Origin: Arenibacter sp. ARW7G5Y1
Lineage (GTDB): Bacteria; Bacteroidota; Bacteroidia; Flavobacteriales; Flavobacteriaceae
Direction: 5' to 3'
NCBI RefSeq assembly: GCF_003201775.1
Contig: NZ_QJJZ01000004.1
Coordinates: 340,643 to 404,642 of the forward strand
DNA length: 64,000 bases
Shown here: one piece after another, positions 23,894 through 56,659 of the stretch
How positions within the stretch are numbered: the stretch's first letter is position 1
Layout: each line of letters begins with the position of its first letter
Made by a program: the position numbers and the translations under genes
The notes under the pieces: generated by a model
The model's input: only the letters and a program-made list of their open reading frames with translations
Told to the model about the DNA's origin: nothing
Database searches by the model: none

Positions 23894-25195
23894 CTAAGCA
23901 TCAGCTTTCAACCGATGGTCTATTACAATAACGGGTTTTCTGCTCATTTTGGGAAATCGCAATTCCTGTAGGGTTTTAAAATCGTGGAATTCAATTTTTG
24001 GGAGTACCCTTAGTTTTGCCCTGAAGTGATCCTTGATGGTCTGTAATAAATCATTGGTAGGATTGGCGGTAGCTATTTTAATACAAATTTCATCGGTACC
24101 TATGTCGTTATGGTCTATTTCGATAACAAAGGCGTCTATATCATTAAAAGAATTAAGTACGTTGTACATGGCCGGAGGATAGAGTGTAGTACCCTTGTAT
24201 TTTATCATTTGTTTTTTCCTACCTATCACTGGGCCTAAGCGTGGTGTATTTCTCCCACAGGAACATTTGGAGGTGTGGGCTTGTACGATATCGCCGGTTT
24301 TAAATCTGAGTAAGGGCATGCCTTCAACCCCTAGGGTAGTAATGGTGAGCTCCCCTGGCATTCCTTCACCAACCTGTTTACCGTCATCGTCCAGAATTTC
24401 AATAATGATCAATTCCGGGTGATGATGTCCGCCTTGCCTTGCCTTGCATTCGGTAAAGGCCGTACTCATTTCTGTGGATGCGTAGGTGGAATATAGGGGA
24501 ATATTCCAATCTTTCTTTATTTTGGCAGCGAGGGTGTTCAATGAAAAATCTTCGTTGCGCAATGATTCCCCGATACATATGGCTCCTTTTAATCCAACCT
24601 GGTTGGGGTCTATTCCGTGCTGATGGGCATATTCTATGAGTTTCAATAAAAAAGACGGGACCACAATTAGGTAGGTTGGTTTAAATTTAAGAATGGAATC
24701 CCATTGAAGCTCAGGTATTCCTGCGCCTACCCTGATAATTCCTGCCCCCAGTTTTCGGACTCCCAAAAAATACGCCAACCCTGCCATAAACCTTCTATCC
24801 ATGGTTGTCGTTAATTGCAGAATATCGTCTGAGGTAACACCGGCACAGTCAAAAGAGATGGCCTCGTTATAGGCCAAACGATTAAGGTCATTGTCCGTAA
24901 GGGCAAAGGTTACAGGTTCTCCCAAGGTACCTGATGTAGTTACGTAGTCTATTATCTTGTGTCTATCCACACATAGGAAATCATCATTGTATTGTTGTAG
25001 ATCTTCTTTGGAGGTTGTGGGCAGTTTGGCTAGGTCGGCCAACGTTTTTATATCGCTGGCCTGTAGATTGTTTTCCTTAAAAATTCTTTTATAATAGGCA
25101 GAGTTTTGGGTAATATAGTTGATAAGCTCCCTTAAACGCTGTTCTTGTAAATGTTGTATTGCCTCTGCCGATGCTTTTTCAATTTCAGGGATCAT
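23894..25195 (-). CDS. Phenylacetate-CoA-ligase-like AMP-forming acyl activator (probable hydroxycinnamate ligase of the pigment cluster)
   Basis: The adenylate-forming superfamily is shown by YVTTSGTLGEPVTF (phosphate-binding loop), YSTYASTEMSTAF (adenine-binding motif) and LLRFKTGDIV (ribose Asp). The C-terminal KKQMIKYKGTTLYPPAMYNVL hinge is of the PaaK type. The segment CSCGRNTPRLGP may bind a metal, as in PaaK relatives. It is the last gene of the long minus-strand pigment cluster and overlaps the C45 gene by one base. Given a tyrosine ammonia-lyase at the other end of the cluster, the likely job is to activate 4-coumarate (to CoA or ACP) as the polyene starter. This is inference from context. 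Confidence 0.85.
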   Translation of the reverse strand: MIPEIEKASAEAIQHLQEQRLRELINYITQNSAYYKRIFKENNLQASDIKTLADLAKLPTTSKEDLQQYNDDFLCVDRHKIIDYVTTSGTLGEPVTFALTDNDLNRLAYNEAISFDCAGVTSDDILQLTTTMDRRFMAGLAYFLGVRKLGAGIIRVGAGIPELQWDSILKFKPTYLIVVPSFLLKLIEYAHQHGIDPNQVGLKGAICIGESLRNEDFSLNTLAAKIKKDWNIPLYSTYASTEMSTAFTECKARQGGHHHPELIIIEILDDDGKQVGEGMPGELTITTLGVEGMPLLRFKTGDIVQAHTSKCSCGRNTPRLGPVIGRKKQMIKYKGTTLYPPAMYNVLNSFNDIDAFVIEIDHNDIGTDEICIKIATANPTNDLLQTIKDHFRAKLRVLPKIEFHDFKTLQELRFPKMSRKPVIVIDHRLKADA

Positions 25196-26865
25196 TATTG
25201 TAGTTTACGTTTTAATCTTCGAATATACGAATGTACCAAAGCTTTCTCGGGAACTGTGGTAATTTCTTTTGTGCTTGCTTCCAAAAAGTCGTTGAGGGCT
25301 GCCCTATAGTATTTTTTATTGTAATTATAGAGGCCCACCCAATAGTGTGTTTCCCAAAATTCAGGATTCAATCTTTTGAATTCCTCAAGAAATTTAGGAG
25401 GCAAATGTTTTTTGTCTTTGACCGCTTGTTTTATTTGATCAATTTCTATGCGATACTTTTCATAGTTTTGATAAGCTTGGGTATACAGAAAACTATCCTT
25501 TTCAATGTTTTTGCCAGGGATGGAAAGCGCTGATCCTTTTCTGTTGTTTAAACTGTCCTTAAAAACTTTGTTTAGGTCATAGGCCACAAATTCGCCTAAT
25601 TGGTAGGGATTTGAAGAGACCCAGACCAATCGCTGCTCTGGCTTAAAAACAATTCCATGATGGGCCAATAATTGGTTTAACGCCTTTTCATTGCCGTACC
25701 CAATATCGTTGTCCCTAAGGCCTTGCTTATTTCTAAGGATGTCCACCGCAATTGTTGGGGTTATTTTTTTATGGTTTCCCAAAAGTTCTTCCATACGTTC
25801 ATATCTGTATTTGGAATGACTTTCAAAAATGTGTTTTTGGTTGTTTTTGTCTTCGGCATAGGCATCACTCTGAAAGTGGTTGGAGCATATCAATTCGTTG
25901 GAATTGGGAACTTCATAAACCCCAAAATTATGGGGAGAGACTTCGATTATCATCGCCTTTTTATCCCGGGCACTGCCCACGAGAATGGATTCGGATACAA
26001 AAACCTGTCGTTTTTTAGCGATGCTTATAGCTTCCTCCAAAGTAGCGGCATATTGTAATATTTCTCGGGTAAGGATGCTGATAGGCGTCTTTGCAACCAA
26101 GGGAATTTTGGATTTTCCCGCATTGATGGTAACCGTTAGTCCGTGCTCGTTCATCCCCGAGACCACTCCTGTCATACCAGCCCAGGTAACGGACATAAAT
26201 TTGTGGCCTTCGGTGGGATCTTGGAAGGAAATTATTTTGTTTTTAGCAAAATCGTCCCCAGCGTAAAAGTCAAAATTGCGACCAAGGATTAAACTTCCGT
26301 CTTCGGATTTATTGCCCCAGACGGCAAAGGAAGAACAACCAACAAGGGCCAAATCTTGAAGGGCATGCCCTATATCATGGGCACCGTGAAGGTAAAGCAC
26401 CCTAGAATAGGGATCTGCTATGTCGTTAAAGTTTGGGGAGGCATATCTGGATAGTCCCCAAATTTCTGCTTTAATTTCCTCGGGAATGTTCTTGTACATT
26501 TTTCTATTGTACCATGCCAAGAATTTTCTCAGGAAGTACCTTTTTGTTTTAGAGGGCACCAGTTCCTCTACCTTGGATAAAAATATGGCTTCCTGTTGCT
26601 GAAATAGCTCTTTAGTAAGCGCTCCCGTTATTAATCCCCTTTGCAAGGGATCTCCGGAGACATAAAGCTCCCAAAGTCCTTGCTTGTTTTTAAACAGGGA
26701 GTTATTGGAATAAACATAGGAAGTATCCGAAGTTTTTGTTATTTCAGGAATTTGACTGTTGTAGTTACTTAAATCAGGTCTATCCTTCAGGGATTTTGAA
26801 ATCCCACAAGAACTAAAAAGTCCAAGAATAACAGCAATACAAACAATCCATTTTATCCGGTACAT
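25195..26865 (-). CDS. C45-family autoproteolytic acyltransferase/hydrolase, lipoprotein
   Basis: The N-terminus is a lipoprotein signal with Cys20 (LGLFSSCGIS). The Ntn-hydrolase C45 (isopenicillin N acyltransferase-like) domain has its autocatalytic nucleophile at Cys177 in LVGCSSFAVW, followed by GSLILGRNFDF and GMTGVVSGMNEHGLTVTINAG. After processing the new N-terminal Cys would act as the nucleophile in amide or ester acyl transfer. The last ~80 residues resemble a short TPR-like helical tail. It is part of the flexirubin-type cluster, overlapping the ligase by one base. Homologues are regular members of such clusters but have no proven step. Attaching the acyl part of the pigment is a possibility. 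Confidence 0.85.
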   Translation of the reverse strand: MYRIKWIVCIAVILGLFSSCGISKSLKDRPDLSNYNSQIPEITKTSDTSYVYSNNSLFKNKQGLWELYVSGDPLQRGLITGALTKELFQQQEAIFLSKVEELVPSKTKRYFLRKFLAWYNRKMYKNIPEEIKAEIWGLSRYASPNFNDIADPYSRVLYLHGAHDIGHALQDLALVGCSSFAVWGNKSEDGSLILGRNFDFYAGDDFAKNKIISFQDPTEGHKFMSVTWAGMTGVVSGMNEHGLTVTINAGKSKIPLVAKTPISILTREILQYAATLEEAISIAKKRQVFVSESILVGSARDKKAMIIEVSPHNFGVYEVPNSNELICSNHFQSDAYAEDKNNQKHIFESHSKYRYERMEELLGNHKKITPTIAVDILRNKQGLRDNDIGYGNEKALNQLLAHHGIVFKPEQRLVWVSSNPYQLGEFVAYDLNKVFKDSLNNRKGSALSIPGKNIEKDSFLYTQAYQNYEKYRIEIDQIKQAVKDKKHLPPKFLEEFKRLNPEFWETHYWVGLYNYNKKYYRAALNDFLEASTKEITTVPEKALVHSYIRRLKRKLQ

Positions 26866-26879
26866 CCTAATTCCCTGAT

Positions 26880-27752
26880 TTATTCTTTTCCAAACCTATT
26901 ATTGGTTTTTATCAGCATCCTTTTCTCTTTATAGTCTACCCACTTTTGACCCCAAATTTTTCTCATTGTATTTTCAAACGGTCTCATAAAAAATAAATTT
27001 CCAAACATTTTGGACAACAATAAAGGGTTTTTGGGCAAGGCCCTTAAGGTAATGGAAAATCCGCCATCGAGGTATTTAATGTAGTGCCAGTAACCACTGG
27101 GCATATAAAGGGCGTCCCCATGTTTCATTTCCACATATAGCCCTTCTGCCTTTTTTAGGGCAGGATAGCGATCAAAATCTGGATCATCCATATTTATGGA
27201 TTCCAAATTATGTACGGAAAAAGGAACCTTGTACAGGTATTTTGTCTGTTCGGGCGGAAATAAAAGAATGCTTTTGTGTCCGTGAAAATGAAAATGGAGT
27301 AGGTCTGACAAATCCATGTCATAATGGGGAAGCACAGCGGAGCCTTCACCACCAAAAAACATGACCGGCAGCCGTTTAAAAAATTTTAATCCAATTTCCG
27401 GGTAACGTATATCCTTAATGAGTTCGGGCATTTTATCCAGGATATTATAGAAAAAAATACGAAGGTCCGTTGGTTTGGATTTTAGGATTTCCAGGTAGTC
27501 GTACAGTTTCATTTCCGTTACGGGGGCAGCGGAGTTTTGTTTTCCTTTGGTAGGTTCATTGTTGTACAGGGGAACCACCTGGTCTCCTGCCTTTTTCTGT
27601 ATGTAATCTATATTCCATTTCTTACGGGCTGGCCAATCCGAGGTGAGGTTTTCAATTAAAACAGGGCGTTGGGTTTTGTAATATTTATTGATAAAATCCT
27701 CCTTGCTAATAGAACTGACCCTTGTTATAGGAATTGTTTTAATCTGTCCCAT
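26880..27752 (-). CDS. Cupin-like (JmjC-type) putative Fe(II)/2-oxoglutarate oxygenase
   Basis: The family of JmjC/cupin_8 proteins is recognised by the N-terminal RPVLIENLTSDWPARKKWNIDYI and the metal-binding HYDMD (HxD) in GSAVLPHYDMDLSDLLHFHFHG. The block HKSILLFPPEQTKYLY and the later GDALYMPSGYWHYIKYLDGGFSIT supply the second His. The metal triad is present, so it could hydroxylate a small molecule or protein. It lies 1 bp after the CrtI-like oxidoreductase gene in the same direction, and the pair probably modifies the pigment. No hydroxylation site can be assigned from sequence. Confidence 0.88.
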   Translation of the reverse strand: MGQIKTIPITRVSSISKEDFINKYYKTQRPVLIENLTSDWPARKKWNIDYIQKKAGDQVVPLYNNEPTKGKQNSAAPVTEMKLYDYLEILKSKPTDLRIFFYNILDKMPELIKDIRYPEIGLKFFKRLPVMFFGGEGSAVLPHYDMDLSDLLHFHFHGHKSILLFPPEQTKYLYKVPFSVHNLESINMDDPDFDRYPALKKAEGLYVEMKHGDALYMPSGYWHYIKYLDGGFSITLRALPKNPLLLSKMFGNLFFMRPFENTMRKIWGQKWVDYKEKRMLIKTNNRFGKE

Positions 27753-27753: not shown

Positions 27754-29289
27754 TTAAACTTCTTGAGCTTTATTGACTTCCAAAATTTTTTCCAATAAAT
27801 AATCCTTTCCTACCAACTCCGAACAGGTAATAATTGCGCCAATGGTGACGCCCAAGATTCCGTGCATATTTAGACTTTGACCTGTAAACAATAGGTTTTT
27901 TATTTTTGTTCTGGGAGAAACAAAGGAGTGTAGCGGATTGTTTACATCCTTAACATAGCCGTACATAGATCCGTTGTGCGACCCAATGTAATCTCTATAG
28001 GATAAAGGTGTAGAGGCATAAACGGTTTGAATGCAATCTCTTAGGTTGGGGAATTTTTTTTCCAATTCCGTAATAAAAATTTCAGTTTTATAGGCCTTGA
28101 ACTGTTCATAGGTCTGCCCTCTATCATTTTTGGAGGCAACGGTATTAAAGGTGTTCTGCCAGCACTCTACCTCTTTGAAATTCATATAGGTCATAGCTAT
28201 TAGACTATCCCCCCAACCATCATCCTTTTTGTTGATGCCCATAGAGACCATATACCCCTCGGGCCAACTTTCCTGGGTGTAATTTTGTGCATCCCAAACG
28301 CGATCGCCATATTTAAAATGATAAAAATTTTTATTGTGGTATTTAAAGGATTTTGGTTTTAATACAATGTATACGCTAAAGGCCGAAATAACACTTTCAA
28401 TGTTATTTATCCTGTTGGTGTAGGATTTTCTAAAATTTTCCAAACCAACCATTTTTAAAGTCAGTTTGGGTTCTATGTTGGAAATAAAGATATCACCGTT
28501 TATTTGCTTTCCATTTTTTATTTCCACTGAAGTGACTTTCCCATTTTCGACATTAAATTTGGAAACTTCATGATGTTTGAAGGTGTCGCCCCCCAATTTT
28601 TTTATTTGTCTAATAAGAACTTTGGTAATCTGGCTTCCTCCGTTAACACATCGGTAGGCACTCTCTATATAGGAATTTACGGAGAGGGCATGTACATAAA
28701 ATGGGGAACGTTCCCCGTCACCGGCATAGAGAAAATTGGTGCCCGCGAACACGGCTTGTAATTTTTTATTGTCTGTAAGGGAATTGATGTAGGTTTTGGC
28801 ATTGAGCTTAAAAACGTCATCTTGTCCATAGGAGGGATTGCCCTTGTTTAAATTATATAAGGGGAACTTGGAACATGTTTCCCTTAATTTTTTACTGTAG
28901 GTCTTTATCGCCTTTTCCTCATCCGGAAATTGGGAAACCAAACTTTTTTCAAACCGATCATATCCTTGGGCGTGCCTGTACTCCTTGGGATCCCCTTCAA
29001 ACGTAATGATATCAAAACCGTCTTCATCCAATTTCTTGAGCTTCAATTGGTCCATGATACCCAGATACTTAAAATATTGGTGCAGGTTTTGGCCTTCCGA
29101 AAGTCCGCCAATATAATGCACTCCAGTATCGAAGATGGTTTTGTCCCGGACAAAGGTTTGCAGGTTGCCCCCAAATTGATTGTTTTTTTCCAAGACACAG
29201 ACACTATAACCTTCTTTGGCCATTATCAAGGCAGAAACCAATCCCCCTAATCCGCTCCCAACAATTACAATGTCGTAATGTGCTTTCAT
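27754..29289 (-). CDS. CrtI/RetSat-like FAD-dependent oxidoreductase
   Basis: The N-terminal dinucleotide-binding motif is VGSGLGGLVSALIMAKEGYSV. The C-terminal FAD motif is LLFTGQSLNMHGILGVTIGAI, the pattern of phytoene desaturases, carotenoid isomerases and retinol saturases. Length (511 aa) is normal. In this cluster its substrate is more likely a polyene or alkyl chain than a carotenoid, since no phytoene synthase or GGPP synthase is nearby. It follows the MMPL-fusion gene by 137 bp and precedes the cupin gene by 1 bp. A role in double-bond formation, isomerisation or saturation of the pigment is inferred. Confidence 0.88.
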   Translation of the reverse strand: MKAHYDIVIVGSGLGGLVSALIMAKEGYSVCVLEKNNQFGGNLQTFVRDKTIFDTGVHYIGGLSEGQNLHQYFKYLGIMDQLKLKKLDEDGFDIITFEGDPKEYRHAQGYDRFEKSLVSQFPDEEKAIKTYSKKLRETCSKFPLYNLNKGNPSYGQDDVFKLNAKTYINSLTDNKKLQAVFAGTNFLYAGDGERSPFYVHALSVNSYIESAYRCVNGGSQITKVLIRQIKKLGGDTFKHHEVSKFNVENGKVTSVEIKNGKQINGDIFISNIEPKLTLKMVGLENFRKSYTNRINNIESVISAFSVYIVLKPKSFKYHNKNFYHFKYGDRVWDAQNYTQESWPEGYMVSMGINKKDDGWGDSLIAMTYMNFKEVECWQNTFNTVASKNDRGQTYEQFKAYKTEIFITELEKKFPNLRDCIQTVYASTPLSYRDYIGSHNGSMYGYVKDVNNPLHSFVSPRTKIKNLLFTGQSLNMHGILGVTIGAIITCSELVGKDYLLEKILEVNKAQEV

Positions 29290-29426: not shown

Positions 29427-32400
29427 CTAGGGTCCTGTTTTTTCCAAGATAATAAGATTATCATATTTAAAGACAACTTTAAAACCAGTGGACAATATAA
29501 TTCTTTCCAACAATTTTGCACCGTCCTTTATCAATATCAGCAGCTTTATGTTGTTTCTTATTTTAGATACAAAACTATCCAAGTCCTGCATTTCCACATC
29601 AATGATCAATGTATCTGCAGGATGTGCCATGGCGTCATCAATTGAATCCGCCACGCTTAACTTGGCTATTTGTTGGGAAATAAAACTGTTCTTTACAATA
29701 GGCCTTATCTCCCTATCCTCCAAATAGGTAAAAATTTTACGATCTACGGCATTTAAAGATAATAGAAAATCCAGTTGCCCATAATCTTTTGAAAGGTGAA
29801 TTATGGAATCGGAAGATCCAATGTGTTTTGAAATCTGGGCGTAAACTTTGGCGTTGTTCTTTAAATCTGTTTTTACAGCACGGTAGATACTATCTCCTTT
29901 GTATCGATAATCTTCCAGAATGATTTGTATGAAATAGGTATCTCCTTCCACTTCATTCCTCAATGTCTGGAATTCAGATCTGAAATGGGTTGCGATACCC
30001 TTGTTGCGCTCTCTGTAGTTTTTGCCGAAGCGTTGGTCCTCTGGGGAGATTCGATCCAAGATCTTGACCGTTATACTGCCATTTTTTATCACAAAACTTC
30101 CTTTGGGAAGTACTTCCGAATTTCCATGTATCAACACTGGAACAATATCCATGTTGAATTTTTCCGCCAAATAAAAGGCTCCTTTATGAAACCGTCTTAT
30201 TTTGTTGGTTTTGGATCTGGTCCCTTCCGGGAATGCCATTAATGAATATCCTTGGGCTACCTTGTTCCTTAAGTGTTCAAGGCCATTATCTATTCCCTCG
30301 GACACAGGATAAAATCCCGCCAGTTGTACAGCCTTGCCGAATATTGGGGATTTATACACCCAGTCGTTTACCAAATAAATAATCTTTGGATGTAGCATGC
30401 CGACCGCCAAAATATCCAAAAAAGAGGTGTGGTTGGCTATGATGATGGCAGGTTTACTAAAATCCTCCCCTGACGTATTGATTATTTTTTTGCTTACAAA
30501 GGGATTGGTATACAGTACTGATTTCATAAATTTTGAAATGGTCTTGTGAAACCATTTCATTTTAACCTTTTTTTTGAAAGGCAATATTTTCATAAAGGAG
30601 ACGCTCCATATTGACAAGAGTAGTCCGCCGGTACCATAATAACCAAATGAAAGGACGGAATGAACGAGCAACCGAAGGCTAATGGGGCGTTTTTCCTTGC
30701 TCCCAATAAAGAGTAAAAATAATAAGGGTTGTATGGTGAAGGCAACAAAAACGGCCGATAGGATTCCTATAAGTGAAACTAGGCTAATGGAATGCAATGC
30801 CGGGTGTTTGGCAAAAATAAGTACGCCAATTCCCAAAATTGTAGTAATGGCGGACAGTAGGATGGAGGTTCTGTGGGTTCTCAATACTTTTTCCCCTTTC
30901 CCATATTCCTTGAGCAGTCCTGTTGTTATGAATATGCTGTAATCTATTCCCAAGCCAAATATAAAGGTGGAGATAATGATATTAAAGATGTTGAATTCTA
31001 TGTGCAACATCCCCATAATTCCAATAGTAAGCCACCAAGTCAATAGTATTGGGACACTAGTGACCATAACTAGGGAGAGACTCCTGAAGAAAAAGAATAG
31101 GATCAGGACCACTATTCCAAGGGAATAGCCAATTAGTTTATTGAAATCATTTTTGAGGTTGCCCAAAAACATTTCGTTCATTTCCTGTCTATCGATGACA
31201 AGGGTCTTGGGGTAAGTTTTAAAAATTTGCTTAATTCTTTCTTCGTTTCCTTCCTTTAATTTTACCAATGAGGTAACAGTGGTAAAATCATTGTCGGTAA
31301 CCAAATAGTCATCAATTGGCAAGGTAGCAGCACTACTGTAATCCACAATATTCAACAGCCTAAAATCTCTGTTGAGAAAGGAATGGAATTGATCAAAGGC
31401 ATTAGGCTTGAATCCTAATTCGGAGCCGCTTTCCTTAAGGTTCTGTTTTGTGTTTTCAATGATATCCACGTTCCAAAACGCTTTCCAAAGATCAATTTTT
31501 TCCTGCTGCTTTTCTTGGGATAGGACTAGGTTGCCTATGGAGCCAAAACTAAGTATTTCCCCATTATTCCTTAGGCTGTCCAGTGCATAGGCTATGGTGT
31601 TATTGGTTTGTAGGACCTTTTCGCTATCTTCCCCATAGACCGCCAAATAAATGGACTTGGATGACATATTGGTAAGTGCGTCCAATCTTTCCCTAGCTTC
31701 CAATAAGGCTGTAGGTTCATAGTTGAGTTTCGCAATATCCTTATTGAAAATAACCTTGTCGTGAAAAAAAATACTTGCAATCAAGAGGCCTAGAAGGATG
31801 GTTATACTCCATTTGTTTTTATGAAGGTTGTAGGAGGCTATTTTATCCAAGAGGGTATATTTTACTGTAAGCTTGTTGGTGTTTCTATAGACATGGGGAA
31901 TAATCAGGAGAGCAAAAATGCAGGAGCCAATTACGCTAACGGCCGCAAAGATGCCAAGATCCTGTAAGGCTTGCGATTCTAGGAAAAGAAGACACAAAAA
32001 GGCCAGGGCAGTGGTCATACTACTCATGATTACTGGCTGGGCCACATCGGTGTAAAGTGTTTTTACAGAGGGGTTGTTTCTTATTTGGGTTAGTATATGT
32101 AAGGAATAATCCAGGGTAACCCCTAGCAGTACAGAACCTATCCCCAAGGAAATGGCAGAAATCTTTCCTCTAGTCAAATACAGAACCGCAACCGAAAGTG
32201 TGGCACCAAAAAGGGTTGGGGCGAAAAGTATAAAGGGAATGGTTAATTTCCTATAGAATAGGATAAGTATGCCCATTAAAATGGACAAGGCAATTGTGAC
32301 CGTAAGGCGTATATCCTTTTTGATTTGTTGAGCGTTGGCAACGGCTATTAGGGTGGCCCCATAATACTCACTTTTTACCTTGTCCTGAAATAACTGGTCC

Positions 32401-34278: not shown

Positions 34279-34387
34279 AGCTTTAGTTGTGGATGTGGTA
34301 AGTTGTGACACGGTTTTAATGTAATTTGGTTGTTCCAACTTGTGGAAAAATACAAGACATGGTTCGCAAAAATAGGAATTACTAAAG

Positions 34388-46671: not shown

Positions 46672-46676
46672 TTAGT

Positions 46677-47114
46677 TTAGTTTGCCAATACTGTTTTCAT
46701 TTCACTGTTTGCGATAATTTTATCACCGCAGCTTACTTGGATTTTTACTAGGGTAACACCCAAGATCTCATGTAGAATTGTGACGGTGGTTACCAATTCC
46801 TGATCTACGGTTGGCAACTCCAATATTTCGGCCAATTTAATGGCTCCGATATATCCTGTTGGGGCAGGCTCGTTTTTTAGGAAATATTGGTACCCTGTAT
46901 GAAGGGCCACAGATTGTGCCATATGTTCTATTAGTCCGGCAGCCATAAATTTATTATTGTTTACAAACAAATTGCCCAGAGGTGGTGTAAAACCGGTAAT
47001 CACCTTTTCTTCGGAAAAGTGAATCAATTTATCCACCATTACAAAGGGCGCTTTTTGTGGGATCAAATTTTCGATTAGTCCTTTGTCTGCTATTGTTTGT
47101 TTCAATAAATTCAT
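46677..47114 (-). CDS. Hot-dog dehydratase-like protein, paralogue of its neighbour
   Basis: This 145-residue hot-dog protein has LIPQKAPFVMVDKLIHFSEEKVITGF and AAGLIEHMAQSVALHTGYQ. The conserved His of the HRAP block in the neighbour is replaced by Gln (PQKAP), while EHMAQ keeps a possible catalytic Glu/His, so the two paralogues may have divided functions. It follows the DarB-like gene with no gap and precedes its paralogue by 5 bp. It probably handles 3-hydroxyacyl-ACP intermediates of the polyene chain. Confidence 0.83.
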   Translation of the reverse strand: MNLLKQTIADKGLIENLIPQKAPFVMVDKLIHFSEEKVITGFTPPLGNLFVNNNKFMAAGLIEHMAQSVALHTGYQYFLKNEPAPTGYIGAIKLAEILELPTVDQELVTTVTILHEILGVTLVKIQVSCGDKIIANSEMKTVLAN

Positions 47115-48245
47115 TTAACAGACCGTTAGGTATGCATAGGAGTAGGAAAATCTGGCACTTTCCGGTACGTGCAACAATATCTTGTCTCCCTTTTTTAATT
47201 GTCCTGAACCTACCAATTCTTCCAGCATAACAAATATTGAGGCGGCACCAACATTACCAACCTTGCTCAAATTCATAAACCATTTTTCCCAAGGCACTTC
47301 CACTCCTTGTCGTTTTAATTCCTCGTACAAGTTTTCTTTAAAATAATAGGAAGAGATATGCGGTAAGTAATAGTCAAAATCGGCGGTCGTGATCTGGTGC
47401 TTGTTCATAGCCATCTTTAAACTGTCCACTCCTTTTCCCAATATGTTTTCACCCAAGAGTTTAACGTCTTGTTTCATAGCGAAAAGTGATTTTTTGGCCC
47501 AGTCTTCGGCAGGATATTCGCTCCAAGGTTTTAAATGGCCATTTTCCAATTTATCGGCACCGGCATACATACATGTCTCCATTTCAAAGGCATAGGAATA
47601 CCCCTCCATCCATTCAATTTTTAAAGCAATGCCCTTAGGTTCGCTTTCCAGTAATACGGCTCCTGAGCCATCGGAAAGCATCCAGCGCAAAAATTCTTTA
47701 TTGAAGGCCAATATTGGATTGTCTTCCAACTCTTTTAGGTGTTCCACCTCATTTTCAAAAATATCGGATTTCATCCAAGTCGAGGTTCTTTCCGATCCAG
47801 TGCATACCGCATTGGACACCTGTCCTGCCTTTATGGCCAAGAATCCATATTTTAGGGCATTCATCCCGGAGCAGCAGGCTCCGGAAGGGGAATTAACCTC
47901 TAAATTTCCATTTTTTAAAAAGCCGTGCACCATAGAAGCGTGCGATGGCAATATTTGGTCCGGGCTACTGGTGCCACAGGAAAGTAGTTCAATATCCTTG
48001 GTCGTAAAGGTGTCATCACATAACAGCTCAATGGCCTCCTTGGTTAGTTGGGCATTGTTATGGGTAATGTTTCCACTATCATCTATGGCGTAATATCTGG
48101 TCTTAATTTGATTGTTTCGCAGGACAATACGTCTGGCCTTGGAATTCTTACCGTTGATAATGCCCAATTTTTCCTCCATTTGTTCATTGTCAATAGGGTC
48201 ATTAGGTAAGAACTTGGCAATCCTGGTAATATAAACGTCTTTCAT
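47115..48245 (-). CDS. darB: KAS III-type ketosynthase, DarB-like (dialkylresorcinol pathway)
   Basis: This FabH-like enzyme has the nucleophile in SGACCSGMNAL (Cys125 most likely), His295 in YYLPHISSYYF and Asn330 in SKVGNVGAASI, the KAS III triad. The dialkylresorcinol pathway couples two beta-ketoacyl intermediates, with DarB forming the new C-C bond and DarA completing cyclisation and aromatisation. The DarA gene lies directly upstream, sharing one base with this start. The high-confidence KAS III family plus this partner supports DarB. Confidence 0.9.
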   Translation of the reverse strand: MKDVYITRIAKFLPNDPIDNEQMEEKLGIINGKNSKARRIVLRNNQIKTRYYAIDDSGNITHNNAQLTKEAIELLCDDTFTTKDIELLSCGTSSPDQILPSHASMVHGFLKNGNLEVNSPSGACCSGMNALKYGFLAIKAGQVSNAVCTGSERTSTWMKSDIFENEVEHLKELEDNPILAFNKEFLRWMLSDGSGAVLLESEPKGIALKIEWMEGYSYAFEMETCMYAGADKLENGHLKPWSEYPAEDWAKKSLFAMKQDVKLLGENILGKGVDSLKMAMNKHQITTADFDYYLPHISSYYFKENLYEELKRQGVEVPWEKWFMNLSKVGNVGAASIFVMLEELVGSGQLKKGDKILLHVPESARFSYSYAYLTVC

Positions 48246-49171
48246 TAATTGTTCTTTAATCTAACGGATGAATAGTATGCTTTATCCCTTTTAATTTTAT
48301 TGTAACGGGGTATGTAAGTCGCCAAAAATACAATAAAAACTATTGGAGCTATAGCCCAAATTGCAAATAACAAATAATATTTGAACAAAACCAGTAATTT
48401 TTTTCGTTTTGGATTACCTGTAGGGCCTTTCTTTATAATAAGGTTGGCCCATTCTGTAAACAAAACATTACCTCTGATGTCTGTCTGTATCAGCAAGGGT
48501 TTAACTTTAACGGCATCCAATTTTAATAAATCATCCTGTAGGTTGCCGTATTCATTGGCTAATAGTGCCTTCCTGATGGGCGTTCCAAATTTATCCGATG
48601 CCTTTATATCCTCATCGGAAACCCCAGGTTTGGGGAAGATGCCAAGGTATTTGGTTTTTTTTCCTCCCAACATCCAATGCACTATGGTAATTACACTTAT
48701 GTGATTTATGTGACGGTCCACTAAAGCTATATTGCCCACTAAGTGTGCATTACAGGAAAGCAGTAGGCGTTTCATTTTTTCCTGTGCCATTAACCACATG
48801 TTTCTACAGGCAATAACTGTAACTACCGGTGTATTGTCCAGAATTTTCTTGGCCACATCAGATTTCAGGAAAGAATTAATGGGTATTGAAGGTGTTAAGT
48901 ACCAAACTTGGTAACCTAGAATTACAAGATCATATTTCCTTTCAAGGATATCCTCTTTAGGAGGCTTTAGTTTACAGGGTATTTGTAAAAAGGATTCGGG
49001 AAACGCATCATAGAAATCATCCTGTTTCCAGGGAAATTTATAATCATTTTCGGGTTCAATCCTATAATAGGTAATGTTAACATTCTCTCCGTCTATGGAA
49101 GATGCCAAATTCTGAACAATATCCAACAACTGCCCGGATTGGGAGTAATAAATTATAAGAACTTCTTTCAT
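48245..49171 (-). CDS. darA: Dialkylresorcinol condensing enzyme DarA
   Basis: The N-terminal two-thirds have a flavodoxin-like beta-alpha pattern (VLIIYYSQSGQLLDIV, then YDLVILGYQVWYLTPSIPINSFLKS and VTVIACRNMWLMAQEKMK). The C-terminus carries a hydrophobic segment (LFKYYLLFAIWAIAPIVFIVFL). This arrangement is that of DarA proteins of flexirubin clusters, which work with DarB to condense and aromatise the dialkylresorcinol. The frame opens at 49192, but the ATG at 49171 gives the usual MKEVLIIYYSQSG start and is preferred. The catalytic mechanism is not evident from motifs; recognition rests on overall similarity and the DarB neighbour. Confidence 0.87.
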   Translation of the reverse strand: MKEVLIIYYSQSGQLLDIVQNLASSIDGENVNITYYRIEPENDYKFPWKQDDFYDAFPESFLQIPCKLKPPKEDILERKYDLVILGYQVWYLTPSIPINSFLKSDVAKKILDNTPVVTVIACRNMWLMAQEKMKRLLLSCNAHLVGNIALVDRHINHISVITIVHWMLGGKKTKYLGIFPKPGVSDEDIKASDKFGTPIRKALLANEYGNLQDDLLKLDAVKVKPLLIQTDIRGNVLFTEWANLIIKKGPTGNPKRKKLLVLFKYYLLFAIWAIAPIVFIVFLATYIPRYNKIKRDKAYYSSVRLKNN

Positions 49172-49309
49172 GCGTAAGCTATTAATCTTCATTTTAATAC
49201 CGCCAAGAATACCATTTTACAAATACATAAAAGGCCCATACGGAGATTTTTAATACGGTTCAAATTTAATTTTAATTTTGAGATGTGTACCAAGTTCGGA
49301 TAATGTTAC

Positions 49310-49336: not shown

Positions 49337-50218
49337 TTAGTTTTTAGTACCCCAAAAATCAAAATAATTAAACCATTGCAACGGATATTGTTCTATTATC
49401 CATTCCATGCTTTTGATATAATTGGCCAATAATCCTTCGGCATCCCTTTTCTTAAAATCTGCTTTTCTTGCGTAAAGATGATAGTGTTTGTTGGTTTCCT
49501 TCATTACATACACAAAGAGGACAGGTACGTTTAATCTGGACCCCATTAAAAAAGGACCGGAAGGAAATTGTGCTTTTTCACCTAATATTGGAGCCGTCAG
49601 CAGCTTGGCCGTTGTTGCATACCTATCTCCGGTCATGCAAATTATTTCATTTTTTGCCAAGGCGGCATTCATTTCAAAGATATGGGAAAGATCTTCCCGA
49701 AGGATAATAAATTTGGTGGCAGATTTCTTGATATACCGATCAAGGTATTCCTTTATTGCCTTATGCTCGGCATCTGTGGTAAGCAAATTAATAGTGGCAT
49801 TACCTTCCAATTCGTCCAAAAAGAATTCAGCTATTTCGAAGTTGCCCAAATGGGCACTGATCAAAATCCCGCCTTTTTTATTGGCCAAGGTTTCGTTAAG
49901 GTGTTCTATTCCGTCGAAATGATAGGTGAACCTATTTCTCAGACCCGAAGAAATAGCTACTTTGTCCAAAATGGTCTGACCAAAAACGTAGTAGCTTTTA
50001 TAAATGGATACGATACTTTTTAGGGGGCTGTACCCAAGTCTTTTGTGGAAGTAATAATAACTGGATTTAGTGCTTTTGGGAGTAAAAAAGCAAAAATAGA
50101 ACGCTACAAAATAAAGAATGAAATAGGCCGATCCCAATCCAAGCCTTCTAATGGAAAAAACAAAAATCTTATATCCTAAAACAGAACCTCTGGACTTTCC
50201 TTTCCATTGATTAGACAT
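49337..50218 (-). CDS. LpxL/HtrB-like lysophospholipid/lipid A-type acyltransferase
   Basis: This membrane-associated acyltransferase of 293 aa has an N-terminal helix (LGSAYFILYFVAFYFCFF). The HX4(D/E) catalytic motif is ISAHLGNFEIAE, followed by ICMTGDRYATTAKLLTAPILGEKAQFPSGPFLMG. True lipid A acyltransferases use acyl-ACP donors, so this copy could take an ACP-bound aryl-polyene chain and acylate the resorcinol or a lipid acceptor in the inner membrane. It is 18 bp after the ACP gene. Acyltransferases of this type are standard in aryl-polyene clusters. Confidence 0.9.
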   Translation of the reverse strand: MSNQWKGKSRGSVLGYKIFVFSIRRLGLGSAYFILYFVAFYFCFFTPKSTKSSYYYFHKRLGYSPLKSIVSIYKSYYVFGQTILDKVAISSGLRNRFTYHFDGIEHLNETLANKKGGILISAHLGNFEIAEFFLDELEGNATINLLTTDAEHKAIKEYLDRYIKKSATKFIILREDLSHIFEMNAALAKNEIICMTGDRYATTAKLLTAPILGEKAQFPSGPFLMGSRLNVPVLFVYVMKETNKHYHLYARKADFKKRDAEGLLANYIKSMEWIIEQYPLQWFNYFDFWGTKN

Positions 50219-50235: not shown

Positions 50236-50478
50236 TTAATTTAATTTCTTCTCTATAAGATCATAAAAGTCTTGTAGTGTAATTACATTAATGAAATCTT
50301 CCCCTACTAATTTAACACTAAAGTTAGATTCGATGGCCACTACTAAATCAACAAAATCCAAACTGTCCAATTCCAGTGTTTTCTTTAAATTGGCCATTGG
50401 CGAAATATCATCTGCATCAACTTCAAATTCATCTATAAGAAAGTTGTTTATTTTATCAATAATTACTTCTTTATTCAT
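50236..50478 (-). CDS. Acyl carrier protein
   Basis: This 80-residue type II ACP has Ser39 as the phosphopantetheine site in LELDSLDFVDLV. It is the second ACP of the cluster. Its place between the KS/FabG genes and the LpxL-like acyltransferase and DarA/B genes suggests it carries either the dialkylresorcinol precursor or the chain handed to the acyltransferase. The DarC-like role is an inference. The KS gene stop is 3 bp upstream. Confidence 0.92.
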   Translation of the reverse strand: MNKEVIIDKINNFLIDEFEVDADDISPMANLKKTLELDSLDFVDLVVAIESNFSVKLVGEDFINVITLQDFYDLIEKKLN

Positions 50479-51720: not shown

Positions 51721-52464
51721 TTAAGAATATATTCCTCCGTTAATATTAATGACCTCGCCTGTAATATACGATGACTTTTTGGAAGCCAAAAAGGAAACTA
51801 GGTGGGCAACCTCCCCTGCGTCCCCAAAGCGGTTCATGGGAATCATTCTTTTAAGCTCTTTCTCGTCAAGATCTCCGGTCATATCAGTCTTAATAAAACC
51901 AGGTGCCACAGCATTAACAGTGATGTTCCTTTTTGCTATTTCCTGCGCCAAGGCCTTTGTGGCCGCTATTATGCCTCCTTTTGCGGCAGAATAATTGACT
52001 TGTCCCGGTGTTCCTTTTAGGCCGGATACGGAAACCATATTAATGATCCTGCCATATTTATGCACCAATAACTTTTGGATCAGATGATTGGTGACATTGT
52101 AAAAACCGTTCAAACTGGTATTGATAACATTGTTCCAATCCTCTGGTTTCATCCACATGAAAAGGCCGTCCTTTGTAATTCCGGCATTGTTTACGATCAC
52201 CTCTATAATAGCGTCCTTGTTGGCTTCATGCCATTGGTCCAATTTATTTTGTACATCCTTGGTATCACCGACATTAAATTGTATTAGCTCCGCACTTCCA
52301 CCAATTTTCTCTATTTCACCCAAGGTTTCCTGTGCTGCGGAAGCATTGTCCTTATAATTAATTAGAATCTTATACTCGGTATCCAGTGCCAACTGCAGGC
52401 ATATAGCTTTTCCGATTCCCCTTGACCCTCCGGTTACCAGTGCAAATTTCTTTTTTTCGCTCAT
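51721..52464 (-). CDS. fabG: 3-oxoacyl-ACP reductase (SDR)
   Basis: This is a short-chain dehydrogenase of 247 aa. The cofactor motif TGGSRGIGKAI, the NNAG stretch and the catalytic Ser-Tyr-Lys set in NMVSVSGLKGTPGQVNYSAAKGG are all present. It reduces 3-ketoacyl-ACP to 3-hydroxyacyl-ACP, the step before the hot-dog dehydratases. It is the only FabG-type reductase in the cluster and no enoyl reductase is present, which is what a conjugated polyene product requires. Confidence 0.95.
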   Translation of the reverse strand: MSEKKKFALVTGGSRGIGKAICLQLALDTEYKILINYKDNASAAQETLGEIEKIGGSAELIQFNVGDTKDVQNKLDQWHEANKDAIIEVIVNNAGITKDGLFMWMKPEDWNNVINTSLNGFYNVTNHLIQKLLVHKYGRIINMVSVSGLKGTPGQVNYSAAKGGIIAATKALAQEIAKRNITVNAVAPGFIKTDMTGDLDEKELKRMIPMNRFGDAGEVAHLVSFLASKKSSYITGEVININGGIYS

Positions 52465-53619: not shown

Positions 53620-53752
53620 CTTAGATCTTTTTAAATTAAAACGTTCATATTCAATAATTACCAAGTTGGGACCCGGTGTATGTTTAACATTAAGCTATGC
53701 CACTATTAAATTATGGATTATTTTATTCAAATAACTTTTCTAACTCAATTTT

Positions 53753-55309
53753 TTAATTAAGATGCTTACAAGCGTAAGATTCTTCCTCAAAATTTAGAAT
53801 AAAGTCTTTAACCTTATTTACATAAGGATACATGGGAACGTCTTTGTCGGAGATAGGGGGGACCAAATTTCTAATATCATCATACATTTTTCTTGTTTTG
53901 GACGATATTTTGTCCTGAACTTTCAAATACTCAATGGCCTGGACAATAGTTATTGTTTCTATCGCAAGGACTTCAAAAGTATTTTCGATGACTTTTTTGG
54001 TAATGTTGGCTGCGTTGGTTCCCATGCTAACAATGTCCTGATTGTCGTTGTTGTTTGGGATACTGTGAACGTACATGGGATTGGACAACATTTGGTTTTC
54101 AGCAGTGGTGGAGGTGGCAGTGAACTGTACACCTTGCATCCCGAAATTTAAACCAAGTTTACCAAGATTGACAAAGGGGGGAAGTATATTATTAAGGTTT
54201 GGATTTAAGAGGTAGTTTAATTGCCTTTCGGCAAGCATGCTCATTTTGGTCACGATTAGTTTTAGTTTGTCCATTTCAAGGGAAACATAATCGCCGTGAA
54301 AGTTTCCGCCATGGTACACATGCTCTTTTTCAACATCCACAATGGGGTTGTCGTTGGCCGAATTGACTTCTTCGATAAGAATTCTTTCTACGTTGTTCAA
54401 AGTGTCAAGAACTGGACCTAAGATCTGGGGTACGCATCTCAAGGAATAGTATTCCTGTACCTTTTCCTCAAATATAGACACTTCGTTATTGCCGTTGTAC
54501 AAATGGTGTTCCCTCTTACGGGTAAGGGCACTATCCTTTAAATGATTTCTCATGGATTTGGCGATCTGCTGCTGCCCTTTGTGTTTTTTGGACTGATTTA
54601 GCTCTAGTGACAAGTGGTCATCATAGGCATGTACTATTTCATTGATGGCAGATGAACAGCATATCATCCAATCCAATAACTTTCTGGTGTTTATGGTGTT
54701 GATGAGGCCAATTCCCGTCATCACCGAAGTGCCATTTATAAGTGCCAAGCCCTCTCTTAAAGAAACGGTAATGGGCTTTAGGTTTTCTATTTTAAATACT
54801 TCTTCCGTTGGTCTTCTCTCTTCTTTGTAAAATACCTCACCTTCCCCAATAAGTACTAGGGCTATATGTGCCAATTGGACTAAATCGCCGCTGGCACCCA
54901 CGCCACCATGCTCAAAAATTACAGGGGTAATGTTCTTGTTGATGAGTGAAGTCATTAATTCGATTACCGAAATATGTACACCTGAATATCCCAAACTTAA
55001 AGTGTTCAATCTGGCCAGCATAGCAGCCTTGACATATTGGGCAGGGATTAAATTGCCTGTTCCGGAAGCGTGGCTTCTTATGAGATTGTATTGTAATTGA
55101 ATCCGGTCGGCGTCTTTTATTTTATATTGCGCCATTGGACCAAAACCTGTATTTACACCGTAAATGATTTTGTTTTGGGAAAAGTGGCTTAAAAAATTAA
55201 AACTATTTTCGACGGTTGTTAAAACGTCTTTATTTATTAGAATAGATTCTTCTTTAAAAATTATACGATAGAAATCCTCTATTCCTAACTTTCCTTTAAT
55301 AGTCAACAT
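53753..55309 (-). CDS. Tyrosine ammonia-lyase (HAL/TAL family)
   Basis: Aromatic ammonia-lyases use an MIO prosthetic group formed from Ala-Ser-Gly, here A139-S140-G141 in HGGVGASGDLVQLAHIAL. The catalytic Tyr lies in YGVNTGFGPMAQY, with conserved LIRSHASGTG and QYYSLRCVPQILGP-like segments. I recognise extensive local similarity (NTGFGPMAQY, HGGVGASGDLVQL, NDNPIVDVE, YHGGNFHGDY, MYVHSIPNNNDNQD) to the characterised Flavobacterium johnsoniae TAL, so deamination of tyrosine to 4-coumarate is the best call over histidine ammonia-lyase. No hutU/hutI genes are nearby. 4-Coumarate would be the starter of the aryl polyene, which fits the gene's place in this cluster. Confidence 0.92.
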   Translation of the reverse strand: MLTIKGKLGIEDFYRIIFKEESILINKDVLTTVENSFNFLSHFSQNKIIYGVNTGFGPMAQYKIKDADRIQLQYNLIRSHASGTGNLIPAQYVKAAMLARLNTLSLGYSGVHISVIELMTSLINKNITPVIFEHGGVGASGDLVQLAHIALVLIGEGEVFYKEERRPTEEVFKIENLKPITVSLREGLALINGTSVMTGIGLINTINTRKLLDWMICCSSAINEIVHAYDDHLSLELNQSKKHKGQQQIAKSMRNHLKDSALTRKREHHLYNGNNEVSIFEEKVQEYYSLRCVPQILGPVLDTLNNVERILIEEVNSANDNPIVDVEKEHVYHGGNFHGDYVSLEMDKLKLIVTKMSMLAERQLNYLLNPNLNNILPPFVNLGKLGLNFGMQGVQFTATSTTAENQMLSNPMYVHSIPNNNDNQDIVSMGTNAANITKKVIENTFEVLAIETITIVQAIEYLKVQDKISSKTRKMYDDIRNLVPPISDKDVPMYPYVNKVKDFILNFEEESYACKHLN

Positions 55310-55414: not shown

Positions 55415-56659
55415 ATGAATCAACGTTTAGTCGAAGTCTTAGTAATTGGCGCAGGGCCGTCTGGTTGCGTCTCCGCAGCCTTTTTACAAGGTCAAGGAAT
55501 TCAAGTTCAGGTGGTTGAAAAAAGTATTTTTCCCAGATTTGTAATAGGGGAGAGCCTTTTGCCCAGATGTATGGATCATTTTGAGGAAGTAGGCCTGTTG
55601 GAAGGTTTGAATGCCTTTGGTTTTGAAAAGAAATTTGGAGCCCGATTTATAAAAGGGGACAAAATCTGTGAATTTGATTTTAGTAAGAAACACACCAAGG
55701 GTTGGGATTGGACTTGGCAGGTTCCTAGAGCGGATTTTGACAAAGTATTGGTAGACGAACTGATCAAGAAGGGGGTGGAAGTCTCCTTTGGACATGAGGT
55801 TGTAGATGTTGTTATTGACGAAAATGGGGGTTCCCTGACCACTATTAAGGATGAAAATGGGGAACCATACCAGGTACAGGCAAAATATATAATAGATTCC
55901 AGTGGTTACGGAAGGGTATTGCCCAGATTGTTGGATTTGGACAAGCCCTCTGTCCTGCCCAGCCATTCCTCTATTTTTACCCATGTAGTGGATGTAAACC
56001 GCCCAGAGGGTAGGGAAGGTACCCTGATTACTTTTGATGTGGTTGATAAAGAGGTTTGGTTATGGGTCATTCCATTTTCAAATGGAAGAACAAGTATTGG
56101 GTATGTGGGGCCTACTGAATTTTTGGAGTCCTTTGAAGGAAGTAATGGGGAAAAATTGACACAGATGTTGAAGTTGTCCAACTATTATTACGAACGCTTT
56201 AAGGGGGTCGAATTTTTGTTCGAACCGGTTTTGATAAAGAATTATTCCAAATCAGTAAAAAAACTTTATGGTAAAGGATTTGTTTTAACGGGCAATAGTG
56301 CGGAGTTTTTGGATCCCGTCTTTTCTTCTGGAGTTACTTTTGCCACAGAATCGGCCTTGTTGGGTGCAAAACTCATTGCCAAAGCTCTTAAAGGTGAGGC
56401 AGTTGATTGGGAGAAGGAATACTCTGATTATATTAGGGAAGGAGTAAACGTATTTTCTTCCTATGTTAACGAGTGGTATAGCGGTAATTTACAGACCTTG
56501 TTTTTTCATGAACCGGAAAATCCAGAGGTAAAAAGACAAATATGTTCTGTTTTGGCGGGCTATGTCTGGGACAAGACCAATCCCTTTGTGACCAAGCACA
56601 ATAGACTTATTAGAACGGTAGCCCATATAATTGAACTTGAAAAGCAAAAAAGTGAATGA
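55415..56659 (+). CDS. FAD-dependent halogenase/monooxygenase-like oxidoreductase
   Basis: The dinucleotide motif is GAGPSG (residues 12-17) in VLVIGAGPSGCVSAAFL. The segment WLWVIP (215-220) fits the WxWxIP signature of flavin-dependent halogenases, and KKFGARF (72-78) sits where those enzymes carry a conserved Lys. The overall pattern is also shared with hydroxylases and geranylgeranyl-reductase-like oxidoreductases. It is divergently transcribed from the TAL operon across 105 bp, so it is under separate or joint control. Flexirubins can be chlorinated or hydroxylated on the aromatic ring, hence the tailoring role. A bidirectional terminator overlaps its stop. Confidence 0.85.
   Translation: MNQRLVEVLVIGAGPSGCVSAAFLQGQGIQVQVVEKSIFPRFVIGESLLPRCMDHFEEVGLLEGLNAFGFEKKFGARFIKGDKICEFDFSKKHTKGWDWTWQVPRADFDKVLVDELIKKGVEVSFGHEVVDVVIDENGGSLTTIKDENGEPYQVQAKYIIDSSGYGRVLPRLLDLDKPSVLPSHSSIFTHVVDVNRPEGREGTLITFDVVDKEVWLWVIPFSNGRTSIGYVGPTEFLESFEGSNGEKLTQMLKLSNYYYERFKGVEFLFEPVLIKNYSKSVKKLYGKGFVLTGNSAEFLDPVFSSGVTFATESALLGAKLIAKALKGEAVDWEKEYSDYIREGVNVFSSYVNEWYSGNLQTLFFHEPENPEVKRQICSVLAGYVWDKTNPFVTKHNRLIRTVAHIIELEKQKSE

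What the first reader, a model, noticed from the sequence alone, without database searches (positions are those of the whole stretch)
23894..56659. Complete-looking hybrid aryl-polyene/dialkylresorcinol (flexirubin-type) gene cluster
Directly visible: TAL, acyl ligase, three complete KAS I/II enzymes plus a CLF-like one, a KAS III (DarB), DarA, two ACPs, FabG, three dehydratase-like hot-dogs, thioesterase, acyltransferases, MMPL and ABC exporters and a LolA/lipoprotein pair, almost all on one strand. Known: flexirubins are esters of an aryl-polyene acid with a dialkylresorcinol. The gene set supplies both halves. The step that joins the halves has several candidates here (BtrH-like, C45-like, PlsC-fused and LpxL-like proteins), so this locus could settle an open question about the ester bond.
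Basis: partly seen in the sequence, partly recalled or inferred. Interest (0 to 1): 0.85.

Follow-up and report, generated by a model that had tools for sequence, protein, structure and literature searches.

The report
Flexirubin pigment gene cluster, ordinary
This is a normal, complete gene cluster for a flexirubin-type orange pigment in a marine bacterium close to Arenibacter, and comparison with other genomes points to one gene, a BtrH-like acyltransferase, as the likely maker of the bond that joins the two halves of the pigment.

Summary
In detail: 23894-56659 is an intact aryl-polyene (APE) plus dialkylresorcinol (DAR) cluster. Seven proteins pass NCBIfam cut-offs named for flexirubin or DAR biosynthesis. 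The host is Arenibacter-like, and 14 core genes recur in 69 of 69 full-length relatives. It is ordinary.

All acyltransferase candidates co-occur here, so this locus cannot settle the ester step. Other genomes help. G099 has DAR, APE and BtrH-like DarH, but no match to this C45, LpxL-like or MMPL-PlsC protein. G236 has those three but neither DarA nor DarH. The PlsC and GT2/LpxL proteins resemble E. coli ApeD and ApeJ, proposed to attach APE to a lipid (PMC8253772). C45 looks exported. DarH has invariant Cys-His-Asp; its model resembles CtaG, CcbD and AziU3, two of them carrier-protein-dependent.

Best reading: DarH transfers the polyene from its carrier protein to the DAR phenol. NCBIfam already calls DarH an acyltransferase; the ester role is my inference. 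Against it: few informative genomes, three exceptions, and α/β hydrolases beside FlxY in G099.

The parts
23894..25195 (-). FlxY, aryl acid CoA/ACP ligase
   Evidence: NF053551 731 bits, cut-off 520
25195..26865 (-). C45-family autoproteolytic acyltransferase/hydrolase, lipoprotein-like signal; candidate for the ester step, disfavoured
   Evidence: NF040521 250 bits, cut-off 85; N-terminus FSSCG
26880..27752 (-). Cupin_8 protein, role unknown
   Evidence: PF13621 E 5e-33
27754..29289 (-). CrtD/CrtI-like FAD oxidoreductase, role unknown
   Evidence: Best NCBIfam match CrtD E 2e-30, far under cut-off
29427..33143 (-). MMPL exporter fused to a PlsC acyltransferase domain (ApeM + ApeD like)
   Evidence: PF03176 and PF01553; E. 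coli ApeM and ApeD matches
33109..34437 (-). GT2 glycosyltransferase + DUF2062, like the N-terminal half of ApeJ
34877..35245 (-). ApeI-like dehydratase
   Evidence: PF07977; reciprocal best match of E. coli ApeI
35846..36454 (-). LolB2
   Evidence: NF053540 223 bits, cut-off 60
36435..37073 (-). LolA2
   Evidence: NF053544 247 bits, cut-off 125
37057..37833 (-). Polysaccharide deacetylase
   Evidence: PF01522 E 8e-32
37827..38891 (-). CLF-like ketosynthase (KSN), used here as the APE marker
   Evidence: N-terminal KAS domain only; no Cys at the active-site position, by eye
38976..40172 (-). ApeO-like ketosynthase (KS2)
40270..40527 (-). ACP, reciprocal best match of an E. coli ape ACP
   Evidence: PF00550 E 3e-9; 48%
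40524..41147 (-). Conserved 207-aa protein, role unknown
   Evidence: No family; 68 of 69 loci
41144..42292 (-). Ketosynthase (KS3)
42285..42734 (-). 4HBT thioesterase, ApeK-like
42712..44716 (-). ABC exporter, permease and ATPase (two genes)
44725..45726 (-). DarH, BtrH_N + DUF4872 acyltransferase; proposed ester synthase, Cys13-His126-Asp142
   Evidence: NF053550 508 bits, cut-off 300
45730..46131 (-). DarG, small protein with a Cro/C1-like fold
   Evidence: NF053545 208 bits, cut-off 170
46216..47114 (-). Two FabZ-like hot-dog proteins
   Evidence: Weak NCBIfam FabZ matches
47115..48245 (-). DarB ketosynthase
   Evidence: NF053539 666 bits, cut-off 550
48245..49192 (-). DarA (named by position and conservation)
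   Evidence: 68 of 69 loci
49337..50218 (-). LpxL-like acyltransferase, like the C-terminal half of ApeJ
   Evidence: PF03279 E 9e-12
50236..50478 (-). ACP
   Evidence: PF00550
50481..51704 (-). Ketosynthase (KS1), ApeR-like
51721..52464 (-). FabG ketoreductase, ApeQ-like
53753..55309 (-). FlxA tyrosine ammonia-lyase
   Evidence: NF053541 881 bits, cut-off 700
55415..56659 (+). Flavin enzyme, halogenase-like
   Evidence: PF04820 E 6e-23; 68 of 69 loci

Best explanation
A complete flexirubin cluster. FlxA makes 4-coumarate and FlxY activates it; the ApeO-like ketosynthase with its CLF-like partner, FabG and dehydratases build the aryl polyene on an ACP; DarA and DarB make the dialkylresorcinol. 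DarH then takes the polyene from the ACP onto Cys13 as a thioester, and a phenol of the resorcinol attacks it to give the ester. The MMPL-PlsC, GT2, LpxL-like, LolA2 and LolB2 genes resemble the lipid-anchoring and outer-membrane delivery set of E. coli aryl polyenes and are not the ester synthase. Shown by computation: gene content, conservation, invariant triad, fold class, and dissociation across genomes. Inferred: every substrate and reaction of DarH.
For: DarH passes the NCBIfam DarH model. C13, H126 and D142 are invariant in 77 of 77. AlphaFold model pLDDT 89.0, pTM 0.87; Foldseek finds CtaG, CcbD and AziU3 over the full length. CcbD uses a carrier-bound acyl group through a Cys in a ping-pong reaction and accepts many acyl groups (PMC12945683, passages); CtaG is proposed to move hydroxybenzoate from one carrier protein to another (PMC6772006, one passage); BtrH is described as an ACP:aminoglycoside acyltransferase (PMC10318531, passages). 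G099 (est. 100% complete) has DarA, DarB, DarH and the polyene core but no match to C45, LpxL-like or MMPL-PlsC. G236 and G321 (est. 99%) have MMPL-PlsC, LpxL-like and the polyene core (G236 also C45) but no DarA and no DarH. G192 and G166 have DarA, LpxL-like and MMPL-PlsC, and DarH (G192, G166 as L090), but no C45-family protein at E 0.001. Of 36 DarH genomes, 27 have it within 20 kb of DarB, 17 within 20 kb of the CLF. Azoarcus, whose pigment was assigned by MS as a polyene-DAR hybrid, has a BtrH-like gene in its dar cluster and no C45 in its Table 1 (PMC3949708, sections 18 and 22 and passages).
Against: No activity is shown. Counts alone barely separate the candidates: in 35 DarA+CLF genomes DarH is in 33, LpxL-like 33, C45 32, MMPL-PlsC 32; in 5 CLF genomes without DarA, DarH 1, C45 2, LpxL-like 2, MMPL-PlsC 3, and related genomes are not independent. 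Exceptions: G308 (360 contigs) and G335 (83% complete; broken DarH pieces) have DarA and CLF but no DarH over cut-off; G304 (78%) has DarH without DarA. G099 and G321 carry alpha/beta hydrolases beside FlxY, where G236 and the window have C45; one G099 hydrolase also matches BAAT_C weakly (23 bits), so a stand-in for C45 is not excluded. AziU3, the best Foldseek hit, is to my recollection an aziridine-forming enzyme, not an acyltransferase. CcbD has Glu where DarH has Asp. The solved relatives known to me make amides, not phenol esters. The sequence profile found none of them. Proteobacteria could not be searched.
Confidence: 0.7

Rival explanations
1. The C45 protein (25195-26865) forms the ester outside the cytoplasm, for instance by moving the polyene from a lipid carrier made by the PlsC/ApeJ-like proteins onto exported DAR.
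For: C45 enzymes include acyl-CoA:6-APA acyltransferase (Pfam name). It is next to FlxY and in 31 of 33 DarB-positive genomes and 32 of 35 DarA+CLF genomes. Four of five N-termini read look like lipoprotein signals and the fifth (G236) like a membrane anchor.
Against: No C45-family match at all in G192, G166 and G230, which keep DarA and DarH (G166 DarH seen as L090); present in G236, which has no DarA or DarH. G099 has only two distant members away from the cluster. Not in the published Azoarcus table. But an alpha/beta hydrolase could replace it in G099 and G321; G192, G166 and G230 were not searched for one.
Confidence: 0.12
2. The PlsC domain or the LpxL-like protein joins the polyene to DAR.
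For: Both are acyltransferases of the cluster with HX4D/E motifs (by eye) and are kept in most DarA+CLF genomes (33 and 32 of 35).
Against: They match ApeD and the C-terminal half of ApeJ from an E. coli cluster without DAR genes, where deletions leave late intermediates taken to lack the lipid anchor (PMC8253772, passages). Both are in DAR-less G236 and G321 and neither matched in G099.
Confidence: 0.06
3. Another enzyme does it, such as the published FlxW candidate, and DarH has a different role, for example a C39-like role with the neighbouring ABC exporter.
For: FlxW is the only proposal that I saw in print (PMC3992019). DarH lies beside the ABC genes, and C39-like domains are among its weaker fold matches (3erv TM 0.38, PCAT1 TM about 0.34).
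Against: In G099 the only ligase-like cluster gene found is FlxY, whose C. pinensis namesake is a 4-coumarate-CoA ligase (PMC3992019). The fold matches to CtaG and CcbD cover the whole chain at TM 0.63-0.72.
Confidence: 0.12

Closest known systems
Flexirubin clusters of Flavobacterium johnsoniae and Chitinophaga pinensis
   Same: TAL, 4-coumarate ligase, DarA/DarB, type II KS/KR/DH/ACP set, LolA, GT, acyltransferase, exporter (PMC3992019); order kept in 69 of 69 full-length relatives, several of them Flavobacterium
   Different: In C. pinensis dar and flx loci are apart; here they are one cluster. No ApeB-type methyltransferase matched in the window, while the C. pinensis pigment is methylated
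E. coli CFT073 aryl polyene (ape) cluster
   Same: Reciprocal best matches for 11 genes, which I map to apeE, F, I, J, K, L, M, O, P, Q, R; PlsC domain matches ApeD
   Different: No match for DarA, DarB's role, DarG, DarH, C45, TAL or FlxY; LolB2 did not match ApeN; no DAR genes annotated
Arcuflavin clusters of Azoarcus sp. BH72
   Same: Polyene plus DAR genes, BtrH-like gene with ABC genes and darAB (PMC3949708 Table 1)
   Different: XanB2-type starter instead of TAL, three unlinked loci, no C45 listed; the BtrH-like gene is called darE there (its darH is a PilT protein)
CtaG, CcbD and BtrH, carrier-protein-dependent Cys acyltransferases
   Same: DarH model has the same full-length fold as CtaG and CcbD and Cys-His-Asp at 13/126/142, near CtaG 11/128/144 (variants in PDB titles)
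   Different: No sequence-profile match; those make amide bonds, DarH is proposed to make a phenol ester

Membership tests
Flexirubin gene cluster | TAL (FlxA) and aryl acid ligase (FlxY) | tested here: met
   Both over NCBIfam cut-offs
Flexirubin gene cluster | DarA and DarB | tested here: met
   DarB over cut-off; DarA by position and conservation only
Flexirubin gene cluster | Polyene KS/CLF, KR, DH, ACP | tested here: met
Flexirubin gene cluster | LolA2 and LolB2 | tested here: met
   NF053544, NF053540 over cut-offs
Flexirubin gene cluster | Polyene-DAR ester product, KOH colour shift | not testable with these tools
   Needs cells
Carrier-protein-dependent Cys acyltransferase (BtrH/CtaG/CcbD) | BtrH_N domain | tested here: met
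   PF14399 E 1e-51
Carrier-protein-dependent Cys acyltransferase (BtrH/CtaG/CcbD) | Catalytic Cys, His and acid invariant | tested here: met
   77 of 77; 32 of 32 rows, 30 genomes
Carrier-protein-dependent Cys acyltransferase (BtrH/CtaG/CcbD) | Full-length fold of solved members | tested here: met
   Predicted model; CtaG TM 0.69-0.72, CcbD 0.63-0.67
Carrier-protein-dependent Cys acyltransferase (BtrH/CtaG/CcbD) | Sequence similarity to solved members | tested here: not met
   Profile search of PDB sequences finds none; remote homology only
Carrier-protein-dependent Cys acyltransferase (BtrH/CtaG/CcbD) | Acyl transfer from a carrier protein | not testable with these tools
   Two ACP genes in the cluster; no assay

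The most novel reading that the evidence does not exclude
The cluster is three separable modules: a polyene synthase, an Ape-type lipid-anchoring and outer-membrane module, and a capping module of DarA, DarB, DarG, DarH and the ABC pair. Flexirubin bacteria would make two polyene end products: a DAR ester made by DarH, a phenol-acylating member of the CtaG/CcbD/BtrH fold, and a still unseen polyene lipid made by the anchor module, with the exported C45 protein (or an alpha/beta hydrolase in its place) acting on the polyene side. G099 would make the ester alone, G236 and G321 the lipid alone.
Probability: 0.35. Interest if true: 0.6.

Novelty: new member of a known kind. Interest (0 to 1): 0.4.

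Why it matters
Flexirubins have long been used to classify Bacteroidota (PMC3992019), but I found no paper in the held library that shows which enzyme joins their halves. Genomes that carry the candidates in different combinations turn a list of four into one leading candidate with a ready test. The same data warn that NCBIfam names FlxA, FlxY and LolA2_flexi also pass cut-offs in clusters with no DarA or DarH (FlxA, FlxY and LolA2 in G236, FlxY and LolA2 in G321), so those labels alone over-call flexirubin, and that LolA2 is not confined to DAR clusters.

Tried and rejected
Proteobacterial DAR+APE and DAR-only genomes would be the best controls. They could not be reached: the genome search takes only genome handles as a centre, and the one genome-contig scan kept 80 loci that are all Bacteroidota by title. 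DarB on plasmids: 8 records, four regions read; none shows a BtrH-named gene, and three of the four show no DarA-like neighbour by annotation, so they are no clean DAR-only control. BtrH-like genes on plasmids: 70 records, one region read, no DAR genes there.

DarG as a partner like AziU2 of AziU3: its model looks weakly like a Cro/C1 HTH instead (best Foldseek E 0.015). FlxW could not be mapped. The idea that this one locus settles the question is rejected. The ORF at 34388-34876, at first taken for a hot-dog, has no family over cut-off. G099 was first thought free of any substitute for C45; a fuller Pfam scan made for this check shows alpha/beta hydrolases beside FlxY in G099 and G321, now told as evidence against.

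Print: searched the held PMC library only (no bioRxiv, few subscription journals). The only assignment of the ester step seen is FlxW in PMC3992019; the BtrH-like gene appears in PMC3949708 as a table entry without a role.
Full report
Observation. The gene set is present at the stated coordinates. Seven proteins pass NCBIfam cut-offs named for flexirubin or DAR biosynthesis: FlxA, FlxY, DarB, DarG, DarH, LolA2, LolB2. The window is G000:C4:340643-404642 of a 5.73 Mb genome in 46 contigs. Its DarB is 98% identical to that of Arenibacter algicola, so the host is Arenibacter or near it.

Ordinary character. Fourteen genes are in 69 of 69; DarA, FAD enzyme, ABC permease, the 207-aa protein and the second ACP in 68; WG-repeat in 60; CLF-like in 56, being at the edge of the stretch. 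This is the standard flexirubin cluster (PMC3992019, section 0 part 1 of 5 and passages; PMC11885536 and PMC9606717, passages).

The open step. PMC3992019 suggests a ligase-like FlxW; no test is reported in what I read. In the held library I saw no experimental assignment. NCBIfam calls DarH a BtrH-related acyltransferase without naming its reaction in the text shown.

Module comparison. Against 18 proteins of the E. coli ape cluster the window has reciprocal best matches for 11, which I map by gene order to apeE, F, I, J, K, L, M, O, P, Q and R (Table 1 in PMC8253772, passage). ApeP and ApeL matches are weak (E about 4e-4). The PlsC half of the MMPL fusion matches ApeD by phmmer, and GT2 and LpxL-like match the two halves of ApeJ. 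LolB2 did not match ApeN, and the CLF match is weak and not reciprocal. In E. coli the ApeD and ApeJ acyltransferases are proposed to attach the polyene to a lipid (PMC8253772, passages).

Dissociation. In 198 genomes of the class, DarB (E 1e-40) is in 41, 37 over cut-off; DarH over cut-off in 36, with four weaker or broken; the CLF-like protein in 40. The union is 47 genomes; these and G166 were searched for C45, DarA, LpxL-like and MMPL-PlsC. In one search the PlsC-only matches of about 50-60 bits in G199, G341 and G207 were not counted as MMPL-PlsC. DarA and CLF together: 35 genomes, DarH 33, LpxL-like 33, C45 32, MMPL-PlsC 32. CLF without DarA: 5 genomes, DarH 1, C45 2, LpxL-like 2, MMPL-PlsC 3. 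Counts hardly separate the candidates and kinship makes the Fisher values unsafe; the weight lies on a few genomes.

Informative genomes. G099 (est. 100% complete, 80 contigs) has one compact cluster: a protein like ORF 34388-34876, DarA, DarB, DarG, DarH, ABC pair, ACP, then on the other strand ApeI-like, CLF, two KAS, the 207-aa protein, dehydratase, FabG, TAL and FlxY. It has no match to the window's C45, LpxL-like or MMPL-PlsC. All 19 ORFs of at least 80 aa in its 39.7 kb without a BLAST match were given to Pfam: no acyltransferase family except a weak BAAT_C match (23 bits) in an alpha/beta hydrolase whose main match is BD-FAE; two such hydrolases lie beyond FlxY. G236 and G321 (est. 99%) have the polyene set with MMPL-PlsC, GT2, LpxL-like and LolA2 (G236 also C45, LolB2 and TAL; G321 an alpha/beta hydrolase beside FlxY) but neither DarA nor DarH. 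G236's DarB-like gene stands alone elsewhere beside a TetR gene, like solo DarB genes beside TetR or HTH genes on Prevotella and Bacteroides plasmids. G192 and G166 have DarA and no C45-family protein at E 0.001; DarH is over cut-off in G192 and seen in G166 as L090. Against: G308 and G335 have DarA and CLF but no DarH over cut-off (360 contigs; 83% complete with broken DarH pieces); G304 (78%) has DarH without DarA.

Linkage. In 36 DarH genomes, DarH is within 20 kb of DarB and CLF in 14, of DarB only in 13, of CLF only in 3, of neither in 6.

DarH. BtrH_N and DUF4872. C13, H126 and D142 are invariant in the window plus 76 of the 80 loci; L042, L056, L063 and L068 fell to my length filter. 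They are also invariant in 32 rows from 30 genomes down to 48% identity (two rows are duplicates). The AlphaFold model (42-row alignment) has pLDDT 89.0 and pTM 0.87. Of 22 PDB matches with E up to 0.001, 18 are AziU3, CtaG and CcbD chains over the full length (TM 0.62-0.72 on the query, rmsd 3.8-6.3), one a C39-like peptidase over 216 columns and three PCAT1 chains at TM about 0.34. PDB titles include CtaG C11A, H128A and D144N variants. CcbD works by a Cys-His-Glu ping-pong on a carrier-bound acyl group (PMC12945683, passages). AziU3 is, as I recall, an aziridine-forming enzyme, so the fold does not by itself prove acyl transfer. A sequence profile found none of these.

C45. Four of five N-termini read have a lipobox-like signal, the fifth (G236) a membrane anchor, so the protein is probably exported, where no ACP-bound polyene is expected (inference).

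Mechanism and status. Polyenoyl-ACP to Cys13 to DAR phenol: triad and fold shown by computation; donor, acceptor and reaction inferred. Azoarcus gives outside support: a polyene-DAR hybrid assigned by MS, a BtrH-like gene in the dar cluster, no C45 in Table 1 (PMC3949708, sections 18 and 22 and passages); PlsC-type genes are there too, so it speaks only against C45. Names clash: NCBIfam DarH is Azoarcus darE.

Verdict. A well-formed member of a known kind of cluster. New here are the ranking of the ester candidates and the evidence that the lipid-anchoring and DAR modules are separable. Confidence in DarH as ester synthase 0.7; interest 0.4.

Noticed in passing
window 45730-46131 (DarG): Model (pLDDT 84, pTM 0.64) has a C-terminal Cro/C1-like HTH; DarG lies within 1.5 kb of DarH in 28 of 30 loci. 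It may be a regulator rather than an enzyme.
   Followed up: partly
window 55415-56659: Flavin enzyme divergent from TAL with WLWVIP and FLDPVFSSG, which look like the WxWxIP and FxxPxFSxG halogenase motifs (recalled, by eye). With no ApeB-type methyltransferase matched in the window, the ring may be halogenated rather than methylated.
   Followed up: no
L218-L219 (G236), L221-L222 (G321): NCBIfam flexirubin models pass cut-offs (FlxA, FlxY, LolA2 in G236; FlxY, LolA2 in G321) in clusters without DarA or DarH; both carry an ApeB-like methyltransferase.
   Followed up: partly
L217 15918-16838 and 18123-19025; L221 5505-6416: BD-FAE-type alpha/beta hydrolases close to FlxY in G099 and G321, where G236 and the window have C45; possibly a swap of C45 for another hydrolase.
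   Followed up: partly
L111 14361-16131; L112 13425-15150; L220 8520-10251: Solo DarB-like genes directly after a TetR or HTH gene on Prevotella and Bacteroides plasmids and in G236, without DarA; perhaps a separate signal or lipid system.
   Followed up: partly
G182, G199, G342 and a second copy in G192: DarB-like matches inside long frames of 616-635 codons, below the StlD/DarB cut-off; a fused DarB-like enzyme of unknown role.
   Followed up: no
window 52483-53664: WG-repeat protein (PF14903) with a signal-peptide-like start between FabG and TAL, in 60 of 69 full-length loci; no known role in the pigment.
   Followed up: no
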